This document shows positions 33,011-63,893 of a DNA stretch of 64,000 bases, in pieces. Positions within the stretch are counted from its first letter, which is position 1, and the number at the start of each line of letters is the position of its first letter. The position numbers were made by a program, and so were the translations under genes. Under the pieces are notes generated by a model. It had not been told where the DNA came from and ran no database searches. It saw only the letters and a list, made by a program, of their open reading frames with translations. The DNA comes from Sinotaia quadrata (lineage: Eukaryota > Mollusca > Gastropoda > Architaenioglossa > Viviparidae): contig CM054184.1 of the NCBI GenBank assembly GCA_028829895.1, positions 53,055,201 to 53,119,200 of the forward strand, written 5' to 3'.

Positions 33011-34305
33011 TCATTGTATGTTTTTTGTAGATTCTTCGTTTTGAACTGTCTGATTTTCATTATTAATATGTTGTGAAACCTGGAAATTGTTACAGACTTC
33101 AGAATTGTTCAAAATGTCATTGGCAATCAATGAACTCCATTGACCACTTTCTTCTGTGTCTGCGATGCTATGGTAACTGGGAGGCCTACTTCTGGGCTGT
33201 ACGTCACATGTCGACGAACAACCATCCTGCAATGATGACGTCACAAGCAATTGGTCTCCTGGATCTGAAAGTGTGTCTATACACAATGGGACAGAAGAAG
33301 TCACAACTGGATTTACACTTCGGGCTACAGCTGCCACTTGAAGCGACGACCGTGGTAATGTTCGTGGTGGTGGCGGTCGCGGAGGTGGCACTCGTAGTTG
33401 TGGAAATGGCAGAAGCTGCTGCTGTAGTATATCCGGTTGCCGTGGTAATATAGCTTGACTTTCTGAATGTAACTCTGACTGATTCGGTGTCGTTTGCACC
33501 ACTGGTAGCGACTTGCCATACTGCTGTTGACTGCGCTGGTTGGGAGTTGTGACGTCAGTCCGTATTTCCGCCACTGCGTCCTCGTATGAAGGCAGCGTGC
33601 GTGCTGGGACGTAAATAAGCTGCGACCCATCCGACAGGTGTTGTAGAATAATCCCGCCGTAATCTAAGCTCGGAGGGGAGCGCACTCCAGGTGTCGACAA
33701 AGGACACAACTGAGGGGAGCGCACTCCTGATGTCGACAAGGGACTCCACTGAGGGGAGCGCACTCCTGATGTCGACAAGGGACTCCACTGAGGGGAGCGC
33801 ACTCCTGATGTCGACAAGGGACTCCACTGAGGGGAGCGCACTCCTGATGTCCACTGAGGAGAGCGTATTGGATGAACACGGTCGACTGGCCGAGAGTTGT
33901 TTGCCTCAGAGCTTACTGGAGTGGTCAGCAATTCTCGTGTGATACCTGACACCTGGTGGTGTGCATAACGGTTCCGATGACGACGACGACGGCGCTGCTG
34001 AGGTTCGGTGTCTTGTGAAGACGTCGTCTGCCTGACGGGTCTCCACTGAAAAGTCTTGGTCGTCAAGCTCTTCTTCATAAAACAACGGAGAAGAATGAGA
34101 ACGACGACAACGGCAGTGATGACGCCAACAACAGCAAAAACTTTCCGATCTGTTGTATCTAGGGGTCCGACTGCAGTGCTTGTCGGCGGTACTGAGGAAC
34201 TTTTGTTCTCCACGTGATCGATGTCGTCTGATTTATTAGGAAAGAATTTTGATTTATTTTCAGCGCTCAGGGGGTACGTCTTCTCAGAACATTTCAGACT
34301 TCGAT
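33011..34305 (-). CDS. last exon of a single-pass membrane receptor with a PY-motif tail
   Basis: The reading frame stays open upstream past the GTG at 34213 to a strong 3' splice site (TTTTTACTGCAG|ATCGAAG, exon start 34305, phase 1). The exon therefore encodes about 430 C-terminal residues. In order these are: a stalk with one Cys and N-glycosylation sequons (ENKS, PNKS), a hydrophobic span VFAVVGVITAVVVVLILL, stop-transfer residues RCFMKK, a QQRRRRRHRNR basic patch, about four 13-residue repeats (SGVRSPQWSPLST), then LPSYEDAV, a Pro-rich RVPPPRPPPPRTLP stretch and PPSYHS. PPxY and LPxY motifs usually bind WW domains of Nedd4-type ubiquitin ligases, and the Pro-rich part resembles SH3 ligands. 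No kinase or death domain is present. I do not recognise the family. Plus-strand frames here are shadows. Confidence 0.8.
33672..33855 (-). repeat. 39-bp in-frame repeat inside the receptor tail
   Basis: GAGCGCACTCC recurs at 33678, 33717, 33756, 33795 and 33834. At 39 bp it adds exactly 13 residues per copy, so copy-number change would lengthen or shorten the cytoplasmic tail without breaking frame. The middle copies are nearly identical at DNA level. Confidence 0.95.
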
Positions 34306-38178: not shown

Positions 38179-38538
38179 TGTTGAAAGAGAGGCTAGCACC
38201 ATGTCCCTATGCGTGTTGAAAGAGAGGCTAGCATCATGTCCATATGCATGTTGAAAGAGAGGCTAGCATCATGTCCATATGCATGTTGAAAGAGAGGCTA
38301 GTATCATGTCCATATGCATGTTGAAAGAGAGGCTAGCATCACGACCCTATGCGTGTTGAAAGAGAGGCTAGCACCATGTCCCTATGCGTTTTGAAAGAGA
38401 GGCTAGCATCATGACCCTATGCGTGTTGAAAGAGAGGCTAGCTGCTAGCATCATGACCCTATGCGTGTTGAAAGAGAGGCTAGCATCATGACCCTATGCG
38501 TGTTGAAAGAGAGGCTAGCATCATGACCCTATGCGTCC
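38179..38538. repeat. 35-bp minisatellite, about 10 copies
   Basis: TGTTGAAAGAGAGGCTAGCA recurs from 38179 with a 35-bp period. One copy near 38440 carries a 7-bp internal duplication. Confidence 0.95.
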
Positions 38539-38582
38539 AAGCTACTGCAAAAGGAAAGGTAGCGGTTGTATTGATTTCATCT

Positions 38583-38945
38583 ACTTGCGAGACAAAGAGT
38601 AATCCTGAAGTACATTCAATCAGTACTTTTTGCGAGACAAAGAGTAATCCTGAAGTACATTCAATCAGTACTTTTTGCGAGACAAAGAGTAATCCTGAAG
38701 TACATTCAATCAGTACTTTTTGCGAGACAAAGAGTAATCCTGAAGTACATTCAATCAGTAGTTTTTGCGAGACAAAGAGTAATCCTGAAATACATTCAAT
38801 CAGTACTTTTTGCGTGACAAAGAGTAATCCTGAAATACATTCAATCAGTACTTTTTGCGAGACAAAGAGTAATCCTGAAATACATTCAATCAGTACTTTT
38901 TGCGAGACAAAGAGTAATCCTGAAGTACATTCAATCAGTACTGAT
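38583..38945. repeat. 45-bp minisatellite, 8 copies
   Basis: GCGAGACAAAGAGTAATCCT starts at 38587 and then every 45 bp. Being a multiple of three, it gives an open 15-residue repeat frame on the plus strand whose ATG lies in the preceding 35-bp array. It lies in an intron of a minus-strand gene and has no other gene sign. Confidence 0.95.
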
Positions 38946-38999
38946 GCAGGATTTTAACAAACATATACTCTAGCAAGTAAATACTGCAGAAAACCTATA

Positions 39000-44905: not shown

Positions 44906-44984
44906 ATCAACTTACTAACATTCATCCAATCATTGACTCATCACGCCCCCATCTACTCACTGACTACTCCAGACTCTCTCTTTC

Positions 44985-45999
44985 TTTCTCTCTCTCTCTC
45001 TCCCTTAGTCTTGTCGACCGTTGGGGCACCACATATGACCTGATAACCAGTTTCCTCCATTCCATTCTGTTCTCTGCAAATCTCACTGTATTGCTCAGTT
45101 TCAGTCACGTCCACTCTGAGATGCAAAATCCCATCTTTTCCTTTCTTCCTCTCCTTCGCCCTCCTTGCACAGTACCTTGCGTGATTGTCTTGGCAAGACC
45201 TATTGATCATGTGACATGTCCATACCATTTCACTTTGCGTTTTTCGCAATGGCCAATAGCTCTTCATATGGCCCAACATGTTTTGCCTAATTCTGTTTCT
45301 CATTTCGTCATTCTTGACATGATCTCTATACGAAATGCCAAGCAACCTTCGAAAGCATCTCATTTCAGTAGCTTGTATCCTCCTTTCAAGATCTGCTGTG
45401 AGGGTCCATGACACAAAGGCATATAAAGACAAAAGACACAGATACAACCAAGGAGTGCATCACTCTGATCTTTGAGCTGACTGAGATGTTTCTGTCTTTC
45501 CAAACTATCTTCAGCCTTACCATTGCTGTTTGTCAGCGCAATTCTGGACAATATTTCTGGTTTTGATCCCTCGTCTGTCAGGAAGCCTCATAAGTACTTG
45601 AATTTATTAACTGTTTCCAATTTCTATCACCATTCATGATGTCATTGCTAATGCCACTGGTGTTGTTGGTCATCAGTCTGGCTTCTCTGCACTGATTTCC
45701 ATACCAAAAGCAGTAGCTGTCCTGTCCAGTTTTTCCTGAGCTAGCTCCTCCTCATTTCCTGCAACGCCATCAATGTCATCGGCAAAACGTAAGTTCGTTA
45801 TTGTTCTGTCTCCAATACTGACAGTTCCTTCATGGTCTTCCAGAGCATCTGTCATGATGTTGAAAAGGATAGGCGAGAATAAGCAGCAATGTCTGACTCC
45901 CACCGTTGTCCTGAAGCAGTCTCCTAATTGGCCATTGAAGCAGACTGCGCTGGTGGCCTTACTGTAAAGGCTTCTATGACTTTGATTAAGTTGTCATTG
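44985..45999 (-). mobile_element. decayed non-LTR retrotransposon (LINE), 5'-truncated
   Basis: Minus-strand frames carry the C-terminal half of a LINE reverse transcriptase. VEAFYSKATSAV-like residues come first, then GVRHCCLFSPILFNIM (a worn GVRQGCLLSP motif), then LRFADDID, the catalytic F/YADD box, at about 45780-45800. MEISAEKPD follows, then further on SWTLTADLERRIQATEMRCF and RRLLGISYRDHV of the region after the RT. Stops and frameshifts separate these pieces, and a few residues after LFNI are missing, so the copy is dead. It begins abruptly near 45999 and ends in a GA-rich tail near 44985. Clade not assigned. Confidence 0.88.
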
Positions 46000-52230: not shown

Positions 52231-52277
52231 ATTGGTTTCAGAACCCTCTGCATGAGATGAGCCATGGATCACGATAA
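52231..52277 (+). promoter_or_regulatory. 3' splice site and two upstream start codons before dapF
   Basis: ATTGGTTTCAG ends at 52241, a good 3' splice site 22 bp before the dapF ATG. Between them lie ATG-AGA-TGA (52252-52260), a two-codon uORF, and ATGAGC at 52257, a six-codon frame that overlaps the dapF start and ends at 52277. The TGA of the first uORF is also the in-frame stop upstream of dapF, which fixes the ATG at 52264 as the first in-frame start. Its context GAGCCATGG is close to the animal optimum. Confidence 0.6.
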
Positions 52278-53214
52278 AATTAGGCAAACCGGAAGTAACA
52301 TTCGATTCTCAAAGTTTGAAGGAACAGGAAATGATTTCATAGCTATTAATAATATATCTACGGACATCAAACTATCAATCAGACAACTTTTGCATATGTG
52401 TAACCGGAAGACGGGCGTGGGTGCTGATGGAGTACTCGAACTCCAGAAGAGCATCCTTCCAGGCTGTGCTTATAAACTGGTGTACTACAACGCCGACGGC
52501 AAGGAGGGGTCGCTGTGTGGAAACGGGTCTCGCTGCAGCATTGCCTTCGCTCAGAAAATGGGCGTCATCAATTGCCAAGCCGGTCAAAGGGAGATCACTT
52601 TTGAAGCCTGTGACGGAGTTCACACTGGTGGTTTTTTGGGGGGAGATAGGTATTTCGTAGACATGAGTGATGTTTCAGTTGCCGATGTAGATGTGATTGA
52701 CGATGACAATTATTTCCTTGACACTGGTTCCCCACATCACGTGAAGTTTGTGAGCGGATTACAAAACACGGACATCTCGACAGAAGGGAAGGAATTGCGA
52801 TGGACACTGCACCAACCAGCCGGAGCAAATATTAATTTTGTGGAAAAGAATACCCTCCACCAGGTAAACAAATTGCTTGAATGGAATGCTTCAGGTACCG
52901 CAAAACCATCAGTTGCTGCAGATGACGTCAGAATCACAGTTCGTACATTTGAACGAGGGGTAGAGAACGAAACTTTGTCATGTGGCACAGGGGCTGTTGC
53001 ATCAGCAATAGCTGCGTACATACGTCATAGCAAGAAAGGAAAGGAGCGTGCATACAGTGACGTCAGGAAACAAATGACGAAAACGCAGGTCTCCATGCCA
53101 GGTGGTGTTCTTGAAGTATCATTTTCGTTTGATGGAGTTGTCTTCTCCAATATTCGTTTGAGCGGGCCTGCAAATCACGTGTTTGATGGGGTCATTGAGA
53201 TCAGAGAAGCTTAA
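52264..53214 (+). CDS. dapF: diaminopimelate epimerase, bacterial type, in an animal genome
   Basis: Interconverts LL- and meso-diaminopimelate, the penultimate step of bacterial and plant lysine synthesis and the source of peptidoglycan DAP; PLP-independent, two-base mechanism. Motifs in order: FEGTGNDF (18-25), GVGADG (51-56), YYNADG (74-79), CGNGSRC with first catalytic Cys85, DTGSPHHV (153-160), GANINFV (187-193), RTFERGVENETLSCGTGA with Glu230, Arg231 and second catalytic Cys240, and RLSGPANHVFDG near the end. All residues known to bind substrate in the family that I can place are kept. TGSPHxV and the GPAxxVFxG end resemble Bacteroidota DapF, by eye only. At 316 residues it exceeds the usual ~275, mainly by a ~23-residue insert (about 197-221). 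One uninterrupted exon; animals have no DAP pathway, so capture from a bacterium is inferred. Confidence 0.93.
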   Translation: MDHDKIRQTGSNIRFSKFEGTGNDFIAINNISTDIKLSIRQLLHMCNRKTGVGADGVLELQKSILPGCAYKLVYYNADGKEGSLCGNGSRCSIAFAQKMGVINCQAGQREITFEACDGVHTGGFLGGDRYFVDMSDVSVADVDVIDDDNYFLDTGSPHHVKFVSGLQNTDISTEGKELRWTLHQPAGANINFVEKNTLHQVNKLLEWNASGTAKPSVAADDVRITVRTFERGVENETLSCGTGAVASAIAAYIRHSKKGKERAYSDVRKQMTKTQVSMPGGVLEVSFSFDGVVFSNIRLSGPANHVFDGVIEIREA

Positions 53215-53619
53215 TGAATAATGGCTGCATGTAATCCCTCTCAAGTTTATCCGTTTATTTTAAAATAATATTGCGTTTGATCTAGTCACCACGGCCGATA
53301 TGTATACGTGGAAATGAATTGTAAATGTTGACAGACGTAAAGCCTAAATGCCATGGAAATTCTAACTTTTACATTTGTAATTGCACTTGTGTGTATCTAA
53401 ATGAGTGCTTTAACTGCTTTAAAGTTTTTGAATGTGTGCTTTAGGTTTTGAGTTGTGATGTGTGTCAGTAGTAGTTGTCTATCGTTTGTGTTGTCTTGTG
53501 TATTAGTAGTAGTTGTCTATAGTTTGCGTTGTGATGTGTAAAAATATTATTTACGTATAGTTGTCACATAATGAGAAAGTAAATACGAGACTGAGTGACT
53601 GAAATGAGGAAGAAGAAAA

Positions 53620-53625
53620 ATAAAG
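53620..53625 (+). terminator. poly(A) signal AATAAA of dapF
   Basis: First canonical hexamer noticed after the stop at 53214, giving a 3' UTR of about 430 bp. A T/G-rich stretch (GTTGTCAAGGTTTACTTTC) follows. Confidence 0.5.
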
Positions 53626-55848
53626 AAACTGCGAGTTGTCAAGGTTTACTTTCAATAATGTGTTTGTAAACACTTAATATTTTACATTATAAATGTGTTT
53701 GTAACACTTCAGATTACATTATTAATGCTTTGCACTGCTAGCATATAACAATAATTGGTAGTTTGTACTACTTACACCTTCATTATACATTTAAACTTTT
53801 AATTATTCGGTCATTTCATTGTTTGTTCGTTTCATTATATGCTCTTTGCTCAAAGTACAGTTATCGCTATTGGCTCATTTTACTAAGTACTTTTGTCATT
53901 ATTTAATTATCACATTATTTACACTTTTCATTCGTAACTCATTACATTGTTTAAAACTTTATTTACCCATTATACATTTTACAGTTTGCACTATTTACTT
54001 TTACACTGAATCAGTGTTGCCGTACACTTGCACATTGCATTACAGTTTACACCATCCACACCTTACATTAAACACACTTCATGCAATCCATGTTTTACAT
54101 TAAATGCACTTTATTCCTAATTTTACATTTGGTCAATGCAAAGGTCGCTTTCTGTACCTTACACTCTCCACATTTTACATTAAAAGCACGTTAGACTGAC
54201 TATCCACACCTTATATTATATAGGCTTTATTGTCGGCAAGAAAAAATATTTCTGACATTTTATTTTAATTTAAATATTACTGTACATCACATCTTTCACG
54301 TTTTACATTACTTGATCTGTACACTTTATACTTTACATTACACTTGTACATTTTACACTTTCACCTTACAATATTAACAAGCTTCACACCAGTCACATTC
54401 ACACTGTTGACATAATACAGTAGTTACGCTTGTTACTGATTAAGACGTACACTAAATATATTCTTCACACCTTACACTATAGTCGTCATTAACTGTTTAA
54501 GACATACACTAAATATATATTTCACACCTTACACTATAGCCGTCGTTAAACTATTTTCTCATTTTAGTACTGACAGAGGACACTATACAAGACCAAACAG
54601 TAATAACAATAATATTGAGGAGGAGGAATTAGCGAAATTAAAATATAAACTTGTAATCTGTCAACAGAAACATGTCACTTTAAAATTGCTGTCCAGTATG
54701 AACCCGTTTGGAAAGAGCCATTGAAAGAATGTCAGAAATAAGGAATAATCATATTGCAAAGTTTCTTCACTGGCTACTGGAGTAAACTTCGTCTGCAAAC
54801 CTTAACATGGACTTTAAGTATAAATAGTACCGTCCAGTAGTAGAACTAGATAGCTATAATTATAGTGAATTTACTAAGATAGGGCAAATCTGAGTACAGG
54901 AGTGATAGCAATAAATCTGTTGAAAACAATATTTGTATTTACCATCTCGCTTTTCATTACTCACTCGCTGCACAGCTGCTAGACGACATGGGCTAACTAT
55001 AAATCAGCCAGACAGAAGAGTTATTTTTCTTTTTGTCACGAGTTGTTGCCACTTCACACAGCTCCTCTTACTACTGGACAGCTCGATGGTGAAAAGCCTC
55101 TGAAGAAAACGACAATTCCTTGAAGAAAAGACAACTCTGAAAGAATCCGGAAGCAAGTCCAAGTCTCGTACGTGCGCATGAAGCTCTCCTTAGCTGACAG
55201 GCAGTTTCAGATTCCAGTAGTTCTGGAATCACTTAAAAGACACCTCCAAAAAACCCCAGAAAATAATAAAATAAACCAACAACAACAGGCAACGGAGTCG
55301 GAAGGGTAACTCTAGCTCTTCGTCAATATGTATTAATACGATCCAAAGGGTTCAATGCTTATAATTGTCAAAGCGTTATTTTATATTGCGAGCAACTTTA
55401 ATTTCTTACGATAATAGGTTATTATTATTTCCTAATATGTTCATACTGACTTAGTCACAATATTATTTCATACTTTTTTGAAAGCCAAAGCATTTGTATT
55501 TTTCAATTATTTAATGTATTTTTTATTTATTTTTATTTGTATTGTATTTACATCACAGCCACACTTTTCTGGGGTTGAACAGTATAGGGAGAGCAAAGAT
55601 AAAAATAAAAATTGAAAGAAAAGTGTCCAGTCAAAAGAGTGATATAGCTAAAGTTTCAATAGAGATGGTATAATATTGTACATCATAAATAACAGCGAAA
55701 CAAAATCATCAAGCCAATATACAGATGAGATATAGTCATAATTTCTAATATTCGCCAGCACCACAAAACATGTATAAGCACTTCATGCAGGCTTCATTCA
55801 ACAGCACTTTCACGTTCACTTAGATTTATAACTTTAACAATGTTAACA
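53626..55848. other. AT-rich DNA with loose TTTACATTA words
   Basis: TTTACATTA-like words recur about ten times between 53880 and 54370 without a fixed period. A ~65-bp near-duplicate (CACCTTACACTATAG) occurs at about 54470 and 54535. No gene is seen. Confidence 0.5.
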
Positions 55849-61250: not shown

Positions 61251-61486
61251 TTATTGTTCGAAAGGTGAGAGCTCAAAGCAATATCATAGGAACTGATAGC
61301 CAGGAGAGAACAAAAGATAAAGATACGTGAAGCTCTCATAGGAATTGCTCAGAATGGGGAGAGATGATAGCAGTCGTGGGAACTATTAACGAGACTACAG
61401 CAAAAGGCAAAGTGACAGGAAATCCTGATTGAGGTGTAAGTCAGCGTGAGAAGCATTGTCAACAGAATGGAGAGAAAATATAAGGT

Positions 61487-63893
61487 GTTGGTACAAGAAT
61501 GGCGTTGGAGAGAGAAATAAAGGCATTGTCACAAGAATGGCGTTGGAGAGAGAAATAAAGGCATTGTCACAAGAATGGCGTTGGAGAGAGAAATAAAGGC
61601 ATTGTCACAAGAATGGCGTTGGAGAGAGAAATAAAGGCATTGTCACAAGAATGGCGTTGGAGAGAGAAATAAAGGCATTGTCACAAGAATGGCGTTGGAG
61701 AGAGAACTGAAAGCATTGTCACAAGAATGGCGTTGGAGAGAGAAATAAAGGCATTGTCACAAGAATGGCGTTGGAGAGAGAAATAAAGGCATTGTCACAA
61801 GAATGGCGTTGGAGAGAGAACTAAAGGCATTGTCACAAGAATGGCGTTGGAGAGAGAAATAAAGGCATTGTCACAAGAATGGCGTTGGAGAGAGAACTAA
61901 AGGCATTGTCACAAGAATGGCGTTGGAGAGAGAAATAAAGGCATTGTCACAAGAATGGCGTTGGAGAGAGAAATAAAGGCATTGTCACAGGAATGGCGTT
62001 GGAGAGAGAACTGAAAGCATTGTCACAAGAATGGCGTTGGAGAGAGAACTGAAAGCATTGTCACAAGAATGGCGTTGGAGAGAGAACTGAAAGCATTGTC
62101 ACAAGAATGGCGTTGGAGAGAGAACTGAAAGCATTGTCACAAGAATGGCGTTGGAGAGAGAACTGAAAGCATTGTCACAAGAATGGCGTTGGAGAGAGAA
62201 ATAAAGGCATTGTCACAAGAATGGCGTTGGAGAGAGAAATAAAGGCATTGTCACAAGAATGGCGTTGGAGAGAGAACTGAAAGCATTGTCACAAGAATGG
62301 CGTTGGAGAGAGAAATAAAGGCATTGTCACAAGAATGGCGTTGGAGAGAGAAATAAAGGCATTGTCACAAGAATGGCGTTGGAGAGAGAACTAAAGGCAT
62401 TGTCACAAGAATGGCGTTGGAGAGAGAAATAAAGGCATTGTCACAAGAATGGCGTTGGAGAGAGAACTAAAGGCATTGTCACAAGAATGGCGTTGGAGAG
62501 AGAAATAAAGGCATTGTCACAAGAATGGCGTTGGAGAGAGAAATAAAGGCATTGTCACAGGAATGGCGTTGGAGAGAGAACTGAAAGCATTGTCACAAGA
62601 ATGGCGTTGGAGAGAACTGAAGGCATTGTCACAAGAATGGCGTTGGAGAGAGAAATAAAGGCATTGTCACAAGAATGGCGTTGGAGAGAGAACTGAAAGC
62701 ATTGTCACAAGAATGGCGTTGGAGAGAACTGAAGGCATTGTCACAAGAATGGCGTTGGAGAGAGAAATAAAGGCATTGTCACAAGAATGGCGTTGGAGAG
62801 AGAACTGAAAGCATTGTCACAAGAATGGCGTTGGAGAGAACTGAAGGCATTGTCACAAGAATGGCGTTGGAGAGAGAACTGAAAGCATTGTCACAAGAAT
62901 GGCGTTGGAGAGAACTGAAGGCATTGTCACAAGAATGGCGTTGGAGAGAGAAATAAAGGCATTGTCACAAGAATGGCGTTGGAGAGAGAAATAAAGGCAT
63001 TGTCACAAGAATGGCGTTGGAGAGAGAAATAAAGGCATTGTCACAAGAATGGCGTTGGAGAGAGAACTAAAGGCATTGTCACAAGAATGGCGTTGGAGAG
63101 AGAAATAAAGGCATTGTCACAAGAATGGCGTTGGAGAGAGAAATAAAGGCATTGTCACAGGAATGGCGTTGGAGAGAGAACTAAAGGCATTGTCACAGGA
63201 ATGGCGTTGGAGAGAGAAATAAAGGCATTGTCACAAGAATGGCGTTGGAGAGAGAAATAAAGGCATTGTCACAAGAATGGCGTTGGAGAGAGAAATAAAG
63301 GCATTGTCACAAGAATGGCGTTGGAGAGAGAAATAAAGGCATTGTCACAAGAATGGCGTTGGAGAGAGAAATAAAGGCATTGTCACAAGAATGGCGTTGG
63401 AGAGAGAACTAAAGGCATTGTCACAAGAATGGCGTTGGAGAGAGAAATAAAGGCATTGTCACAAGAATGGCGTTGGAGAGAGAAATAAAGGCATTGTCAC
63501 AGGAATGGCGTTGGAGAGAGAACTAAAGGCATTGTCACAAGAATGGCGTTGGAGAGAGAAATAAAGGCATTGTCACAAGAATGGCGTTGGAGAGAAAAAT
63601 AAAGGCATTGTCACAAGAATGGCGTTGGAGAGAAAAATAAAGGCATTGTCACAAGAATGGCGTTGGAGAGAGAAATAAAGGCATTGTCACAAGAATGGCG
63701 TTGGAGAGAGAAATAAAGGCATTGTCACAAGAATGGCGTTGGAGAGAGAACTAAAGGCATTGTCACAAGAATGGCGTTGGAGAGAGAAATAAATGCATTG
63801 TCACAAGAATGGCGTTGGAGAGAGAACTAAAGGCATTGGCACAAGAATGGCGTTGGAGAGAGAACTAAAGGCATTGGCACAAGAATGGCGTTG
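61487..63893. repeat. 38-bp satellite, about 63 units, with higher-order structure
   Basis: The unit is GGCATTGTCACAAGAATGGC plus GTTGGAGAGAGAAATAAA. Variants at the end of the unit are AATAAAGG (A), ACTAAAGG (B), ACTGAAAG (C) and a 36-bp form lacking GA with ACTGAAGG (D). The variant order A-A-C-A-A-B-A-B-A-A-C is found twice, 570 bp (15 units) apart, and C-D-A is repeated three times near 62580-62830. The array ends at GTTGAGTGGCACG. Confidence 0.97.

What the first reader, a model, noticed from the sequence alone, without database searches (positions are those of the whole stretch)
52264..53214. Intact bacterial-type DAP epimerase gene embedded in an animal chromosome
The sequence directly shows a complete 316-codon DapF with both catalytic Cys regions (Cys85, Cys240) and the substrate-binding motifs, flanked on both sides by eukaryotic repeats. 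Established knowledge: animals lack the DAP/lysine pathway, and transferred dapF genes are known in some sap-feeding insects with nutritional symbionts. Inference: an old, functional transfer, with a TGSPHxV and C-terminal pattern like Bacteroidota. As the only visible pathway gene it could act on DAP from symbionts, food bacteria or peptidoglycan breakdown rather than in a full lysine pathway.
Basis: partly seen in the sequence, partly recalled or inferred. Interest (0 to 1): 0.88.

Follow-up and report, generated by a model that had tools for sequence, protein, structure and literature searches.

The report
Ancient bacterial DAP epimerase in snails
A snail chromosome carries an intact bacterial-type gene for making meso-diaminopimelate, apparently taken from a Bacteroidota-type bacterium before the main gastropod lineages split, and the same genome also holds the next enzyme, which turns that compound into lysine, so snails may be able to recover lysine from bacterial cell-wall or algal material.

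Summary
In detail: window 52264-53214 (+) is one intact 316-codon dapF with both catalytic cysteines (C85, C240), in a 54-Mb contig of a 984-Mb, 26-contig animal assembly. It is not a one-off: the same gene occurs in gastropods of four subclasses, on 43- to 80-Mb contigs of several species. The 24 gastropod sequences form one clade (100/99) with sub-groups that match subclasses. The clade falls with Bacteroidota-type bacteria; joining it to plant DapF is rejected (AU p = 0.0004). So this is an old bacterium-to-gastropod transfer, then vertical descent, not contamination. New here: chromosome C1 carries a complete 10-exon lysA (DAP decarboxylase, 532 aa) that groups with lysA of other bilaterians. 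dapB gave no match, and the one dapA-type match looks like the animal aldolase HOGA1. Best explanation: a host-encoded two-step salvage route, LL-DAP to meso-DAP (DapF) to L-lysine (LysA), fed by diet or microbes. The transfer is well shown; enzyme activity and role are inferred. It is a known kind (whitefly, mealybug dapF/lysA), but far older, class-wide and with a bilaterian lysA as partner. No paper in the listings of ten library searches describes gastropod DapF.

The parts
52264..53214 (+). dapF CDS, 316 codons, single exon, intact
52516..52518 (+). codon of catalytic Cys85 (E. coli C73)
   Evidence: alignment; coordinate computed from the CDS start
52981..52983 (+). codon of catalytic Cys240 (E. 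coli C217)
   Evidence: alignment; coordinate computed from the CDS start
52258..52267 (+). in-frame TGA followed by gccATGG (strong eukaryotic start context)
   Evidence: by eye
52232..52241 (+). candidate 3' splice site (ttggtttcag) of a 5' UTR intron; inferred, no transcript mapped
53619..53624 (+). candidate polyadenylation signal AATAAA
51470..51654 (.). 92-bp tandem duplication upstream
53447..53540 (.). 38-bp tandem repeat downstream
54435..54549 (.). 57-bp tandem duplication downstream
45673..45993 (-). reverse-transcriptase-like fragment about 6 kb upstream of dapF
   Evidence: RVT_1, below cut-off

Best explanation
The gene is a gastropod-wide dapF acquired once from a Bacteroidota-type bacterium before the sampled gastropod subclasses diverged, and kept since. 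It most likely still encodes a diaminopimelate epimerase. In this animal it works with a host lysA on another chromosome, a gene shared with other bilaterians, as a two-step salvage route: LL-DAP is epimerised to meso-DAP (DapF, two-cysteine, cofactor-independent), and meso-DAP is decarboxylated to L-lysine (LysA, PLP). The DAP would come from outside: digested bacterial peptidoglycan, gut microbes, or free LL-DAP in grazed algae and cyanobacteria. Shown: gene, integration, distribution, origin, conserved catalytic residues, intact lysA. Inferred: expression in this species, substrate, direction, DAP source, benefit.
For: Equivalog-level DapF. Of 12 E. coli catalytic or DAP-contact positions checked, the window keeps 11 (the twelfth, N157, is Ser as in the Flavobacteriia-type rows); 10 of the 12 are identical in 24 of 24 gastropod rows, and N64 in 21 of 24. 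In one search all 15 named proteins among the 25 ranked above the first bacterium-like row are gastropods, of 4 subclasses (genus placement recalled). Gastropods one clade 100/99; with 62 bacterial rows of Bacteroidota type 100/99, Caenogastropoda-type 100/98, Heterobranchia-type 97/89, limpets 100/96, Haliotis group 100/99; gastropods+Arabidopsis as one clade rejected, p-AU 0.00045. Contigs of 52.9 Mb in Haliotis asinina, 43.0 in Babylonia, 79.7 in Patella caerulea, 75.1 in P. vulgata, 65.7 in Bradybaena. A lysA of 10 exons, 9 of 9 introns GT-AG, 532 aa; TIGR01048 394.8 bits over cut-off 297.9 for the first, 8-exon version; best solved relative a plant DAP decarboxylase at 354 bits, best ornithine decarboxylase 41. 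AlphaFold model pLDDT 83.9; the first six Foldseek rows in PDB are DapF.
Confidence: 0.65

Rival explanations
1. The gene is an old bacterial transfer but now serves another reaction: a racemase or epimerase for a different amino acid, as O-ureidoserine racemase and histidine racemase did within the same fold.
For: O-ureidoserine racemase is structurally tied with DapF; N64 is changed in 3 of 24 gastropod rows; loop inserts differ strongly between gastropods.
Against: 10 of 12 checked positions are identical in 24 of 24 gastropod rows and the window keeps N64; Ser at N157 is shared with the Flavobacteriia-type rows; score above the DapF equivalog cut-off; a lysA is present in the same genome.
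Confidence: 0.2
2. Detoxification or signalling control: DapF and LysA remove DAP released from bacteria, tuning peptidoglycan sensing, with lysine only a by-product.
For: No direct evidence here; DAP is a hallmark of many bacterial walls and animals sense it (established knowledge).
Against: Both enzymes act on free DAP, whereas sensors see muropeptides (established knowledge).
Confidence: 0.1
3. Assembly contamination by a bacterial contig.
For: Intronless bacterial-type ORF.
Against: Inside a 54-Mb contig with animal-type repeats on both sides; protein 54% identical to the nearest named snail against 38-43% for the bacterium-like rows; gastropod clade in independent assemblies.
Confidence: 0.01
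4. Vertically inherited eukaryotic (plastid- or choanoflagellate-type) dapF.
For: [quoted passage not shown]
Against: Gastropods with Arabidopsis as one clade rejected (p-AU 0.00045); 100/99 with Bacteroidota-type bacteria. Choanoflagellate, sponge and cnidarian DapF were not in the tree.
Confidence: 0.04

Closest known systems
[quoted passage not shown]
   Same: Bacterial dapF in an animal chromosome, intronless, with a lysA that bears introns in the same genome; last two steps of lysine synthesis (PMC8659303, PMC4607527; passages seen).
   Different: Whitefly genes are assigned to Enterobacteriales, Rickettsiales and Planctomycetes, are reported from Bemisia but not Trialeurodes, and act in bacteriocytes beside symbionts. 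The gastropod gene is Bacteroidota-type and class-wide, dapB was not found, and its lysA partner groups with other bilaterian lysA.
Bacteroidota (Flavobacteriia, Cytophagia and kin) DapF
   Same: Closest bacterial sequences: 37-43% identity to the window protein for the bacterium-like rows-41% for the 80 loci; TGSPH and ERGVExETxxCGTG patterns.
   Different: Gastropod proteins carry extra loops and lie on their own 0.39-long stem branch.
Choanoflagellate dapF (Salpingoeca rosetta)
   Same: Opisthokont dapF called a prokaryotic transfer (PMC7971027; passages seen).
   Different: asd and lysAC were also flagged there (not passing a second filter); relation to the gastropod gene could not be tested.

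Membership tests
Diaminopimelate epimerase (DapF, TIGR00652) | Score over the equivalog cut-off | tested here: met
   155.2 bits, cut-off 114.65
Diaminopimelate epimerase (DapF, TIGR00652) | Two catalytic cysteines in CGNG and CGTG/CGSG contexts | tested here: met
   C85, C240; both Cys in 24 of 24 gastropod rows
Diaminopimelate epimerase (DapF, TIGR00652) | DAP-contact residues (E. coli N11, N64, N190, E208, R209; roles recalled) | tested here: met
   N23, N76, N189, E230, R231 in the window protein; across gastropods N64 is kept in 21 of 24, the other four in 24 of 24
Diaminopimelate epimerase (DapF, TIGR00652) | DapF fold | tested here: met
Diaminopimelate epimerase (DapF, TIGR00652) | LL-/meso-DAP epimerase activity | not testable with these tools
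   needs enzyme assay
Animal dapF/lysA transfers of the whitefly kind | dapF of bacterial origin in the nuclear genome | tested here: met
Animal dapF/lysA transfers of the whitefly kind | lysA also a separate, lineage-specific bacterial transfer | tested here: not met
   snail LysA lies in a 33-row set with 20 other named bilaterians and 12 unnamed rows, 100/100 (relatives from the list); how bilaterians got lysA was not tested
Animal dapF/lysA transfers of the whitefly kind | host dapB present | tested here: not met
   0 matches to TIGR00036 in the own genome, searched exon by exon; control rings in 11 of 14
Animal dapF/lysA transfers of the whitefly kind | partnership with a lysine-making intracellular symbiont | not tested
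   no tissue or symbiont data
Diaminopimelate decarboxylase (LysA, TIGR01048), the partner gene | Score over the equivalog cut-off | tested here: met
   394.8 bits, cut-off 297.9, for the 443-aa 8-exon version; two more exons added later, not rescanned
Plant/plastid-type DapF | Groups with Arabidopsis DapF | tested here: not met
   p-AU 0.00045

The most novel reading that the evidence does not exclude
Gastropods have run, since their common ancestor, a host-encoded route from diaminopimelate to lysine, made by adding a captured bacterial dapF to a lysA that bilaterians had kept all along. For these animals, and for other bilaterians with lysA, lysine would not be strictly essential when DAP is available from microbes or algae.
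Probability: 0.45. Interest if true: 0.85.

Novelty: new variant of a known kind. Interest (0 to 1): 0.72.

Why it matters
Lysine is taught as essential for animals. If the pair DapF plus LysA works, a whole animal class can recover lysine from bacterial wall material or algal DAP without a symbiont. It would also be an unusually old bacterium-to-animal gene capture with a clear metabolic role (age recalled from gastropod history, not computed), and the question can be tested directly in ordinary snails by expression, complementation and isotope feeding.

Tried and rejected
Own-genome searches answered: PF01678, TIGR01048, TIGR00036, TIGR00674. The single dapA-type match (48 bits, cut-off 206.15) reads by eye like 4-hydroxy-2-oxoglutarate aldolase (HOGA1; recalled), not dapA. 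The C2 lysA match reads by eye as ornithine decarboxylase.

Donor inside Bacteroidota: the drawn tree nests gastropods among the 62 bacterial rows, next to P0255 and P0262 (91/89), but the alternative that the bacteria form a clade without gastropods is not rejected (p-AU 0.114). So the donor is placed within or beside the Bacteroidota type, no closer. Some outgroups have long branches, and the bootstrap of the careful tree had not fully settled. The bacterial rows were picked by me from the lists, not at random.

Selection by nucleotide comparison was not possible: the 98% relative P0001 is held as protein only. Its 6 differences are not informative (1 of 6 in a column at least 90% conserved, against 77 of 316 columns). 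Gastropod names come from the source labels of the listed proteins; 10 of the 25 top proteins carry none. That this dapF is confined to gastropods rests on the 120-row lists; an unrelated dapF in other animals is not excluded. The first regex check of motifs was loose (it allowed CGNA, as in P0241); one search checked columns instead.

Paper searches (10 of 10 used): no title or abstract in the listings is on gastropod DapF; three listings were cut (25 of 121, 25 of 42, 20 of 190). 'diaminopimelate' with 'gastropod' gave 1 paper, on corals. The library holds open-licence papers only. Of six papers I saw passages only.

Full report
What is there. Window 52264-53214 (+) holds a 316-codon ORF that passes the NCBIfam DapF equivalog cut-off. 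The window is part of a 54.4-Mb contig of a 984-Mb, 26-contig assembly. No other DAP_epimerase match was found in that genome. GC of the CDS is 0.456 against 0.360 for the window and 0.498 for the host's own lysA CDS, so the gene's composition sits between them. Microsatellites and tandem repeats lie on both sides, and a weak reverse-transcriptase match, below Pfam's cut-off, lies about 6 kb upstream.

What it is related to. The nearest protein (P0001, 98%, 6 differences) is a full-length copy on a 1,087-base public contig without a name. Named relatives are Batillaria 54%, Babylonia 45%, Haliotis 41-42%, Physella 42%, Aplysia 39%, Biomphalaria 36% and two land snails 33-35%; the bacterium-like rows have 38-43%, and those with names are Flavobacteriia (class recalled). 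A profile search put 25 proteins ahead of the first bacterium-like row; all 15 that carry names are gastropods: Patella, Lottia, Haliotis, Batillaria, Babylonia, Aplysia, Physella, Biomphalaria, Lymnaea, Candidula, Bradybaena, Arion. Several lie on contigs of 43 to 80 Mb. Contamination cannot explain this.

Tree. 93 rows (recount): the window, 23 of the 25 top proteins (P0006 and P0013 left out as near-copies), 29 further listed proteins, 32 of 80 named loci, 7 DapF and Arabidopsis. Gastropods form one clade, 100/99. Within it limpets (3 rows, 100/96), the Haliotis group (4 rows, 2 unnamed, 100/99), the Heterobranchia-type group (8 rows, 1 unnamed, 97/89) and the Caenogastropoda-type group with the window (9 rows, 6 unnamed besides the window, 100/98) each hold together. 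Gastropods plus 62 bacterial rows form one side of a branch, 100/99. Of the 33 of those rows that come from loci with a taxon label, 32 are Bacteroidota and 1 Chlorobiota; of the 29 listed proteins some are unnamed and one (P0263) is labelled a deltaproteobacterial MAG. E. coli, Actinomycetota, Fusobacteriota, two Bacteroidales of another type and Arabidopsis lie outside. Joining gastropods to Arabidopsis is rejected (p-AU 0.00045). Whether the gastropods lie inside or beside the Bacteroidota type is open (p-AU 0.114). One transfer before the split of the four sampled subclasses, then vertical descent, is the simplest reading; the split is Palaeozoic (recalled).

The partner. A lysA profile search of the whole genome gave five exon matches in order on C1 and one ornithine-decarboxylase-like match on C2. 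Reading the DNA gave ten exons, 85203768-85217004, all nine introns GT-AG, 532 aa, no stop. An 8-exon version scored 394.8 bits against TIGR01048, cut-off 297.9, and was used for the relatives search; the 10-exon protein's best solved relatives are plant DAP decarboxylases. The 120 relatives listed include 20 named bilaterians (snails, a chiton, bivalves, amphioxus, acorn worms, Owenia, Lingula). In a tree of 74 rows (73 of those 120 plus the snail) they form, with 12 unnamed rows, one set at 100/100. The sponge-like rows do not join them in one branch. So lysA looks old in bilaterians, its earlier origin is open, and dapF was added in gastropods. Named genera with both in the lists: Batillaria, Haliotis, Patella, Lottia and Biomphalaria, plus the window snail; the lists are cut at 120 rows, so absence from them proves nothing.

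What is missing. dapB: no match. dapA: one HOGA1-like exon. So a complete biosynthetic route from aspartate is unlikely; lysC was asked for without an answer, and asd, dapE, dapL and ddh were not tried.

How it may work. The window keeps 11 of 12 checked E. coli positions; 10 of 12 are identical in 24 of 24 gastropods. The model is confident (pLDDT 83.9), with two low-confidence stretches (207-217, 260-266) that fall in loops absent from the 6 bacterium-like rows. The chemistry is therefore most likely LL-DAP to meso-DAP, and LysA would finish with L-lysine. The source of DAP is inferred. Why an epimerase should pay is open: LL-DAP is typical of some Actinomycetota walls and is the first DAP made by the aminotransferase route of plants, algae and cyanobacteria (established knowledge), so grazers would meet it. 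The fold alone does not exclude another substrate.

Known or new. Whitefly and mealybug dapF and lysA are the known kind, with whitefly genes shown to rescue E. coli mutants (PMC8659303, PMC4607527; passages). Salpingoeca rosetta dapF has been called a transfer (PMC7971027; passages), and a coral DAP decarboxylase appears in a table of genes sorted by bacterial or algal source (PMC4878875; row seen). The gastropod case differs in age, breadth, donor type and partner. Databases already name some of these proteins 'diaminopimelate epimerase-like', so the genes are annotated; a description of them was not found in the searches listed.

The column check added P0007 to the gastropods with a changed N64 and gave firmer counts for the conserved positions.

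Noticed in passing
G000:C1:85203768-85217004: Complete 10-exon lysA in the same genome; part of a bilaterian lysA group that the papers listed in my searches do not describe.
   Followed up: yes
window 61468-63893: 38-bp satellite, about 64 copies at 96% match.
   Followed up: no
window 33011-34213 (-): 400-aa ORF with one hydrophobic stretch, PPxY-like motifs and tandem GVRSPQWSPLSTS repeats (by eye); no Pfam match for the longer stop-to-stop frame.
   Followed up: partly
window 38484-38957: Coding-length repeat (CETKSNPEVHSIST units) open on both strands; the only Pfam match is below cut-off.
   Followed up: partly
window 44953-45459 (-): 168-aa open frame next to the reverse-transcriptase-like fragment; LINE-like by eye, no Pfam match.
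   Followed up: partly
P0009, P0011, P0243, P0245, P0248: DapF of land and pond snails (P0245 unnamed) carries long inserts (lengths 425-461), in the two aligned at loops; some may be annotation errors.
   Followed up: no
P0007 (unnamed), P0008 (Babylonia), P0029 (Aplysia): The position of E. coli N64 is Thr, Ser or Lys: possible change of specificity or loss of function in these lineages.
   Followed up: partly
P0121 (Pomacea), P0124 (Nucella): LysA listed but no DapF listed: possible loss of dapF, or a gap in the lists.
   Followed up: no
snail LysA residues about 270-361: Middle insert (exons 5-6) with a counterpart in Pomacea LysA (by eye) but unaligned to plant LysA.
   Followed up: no
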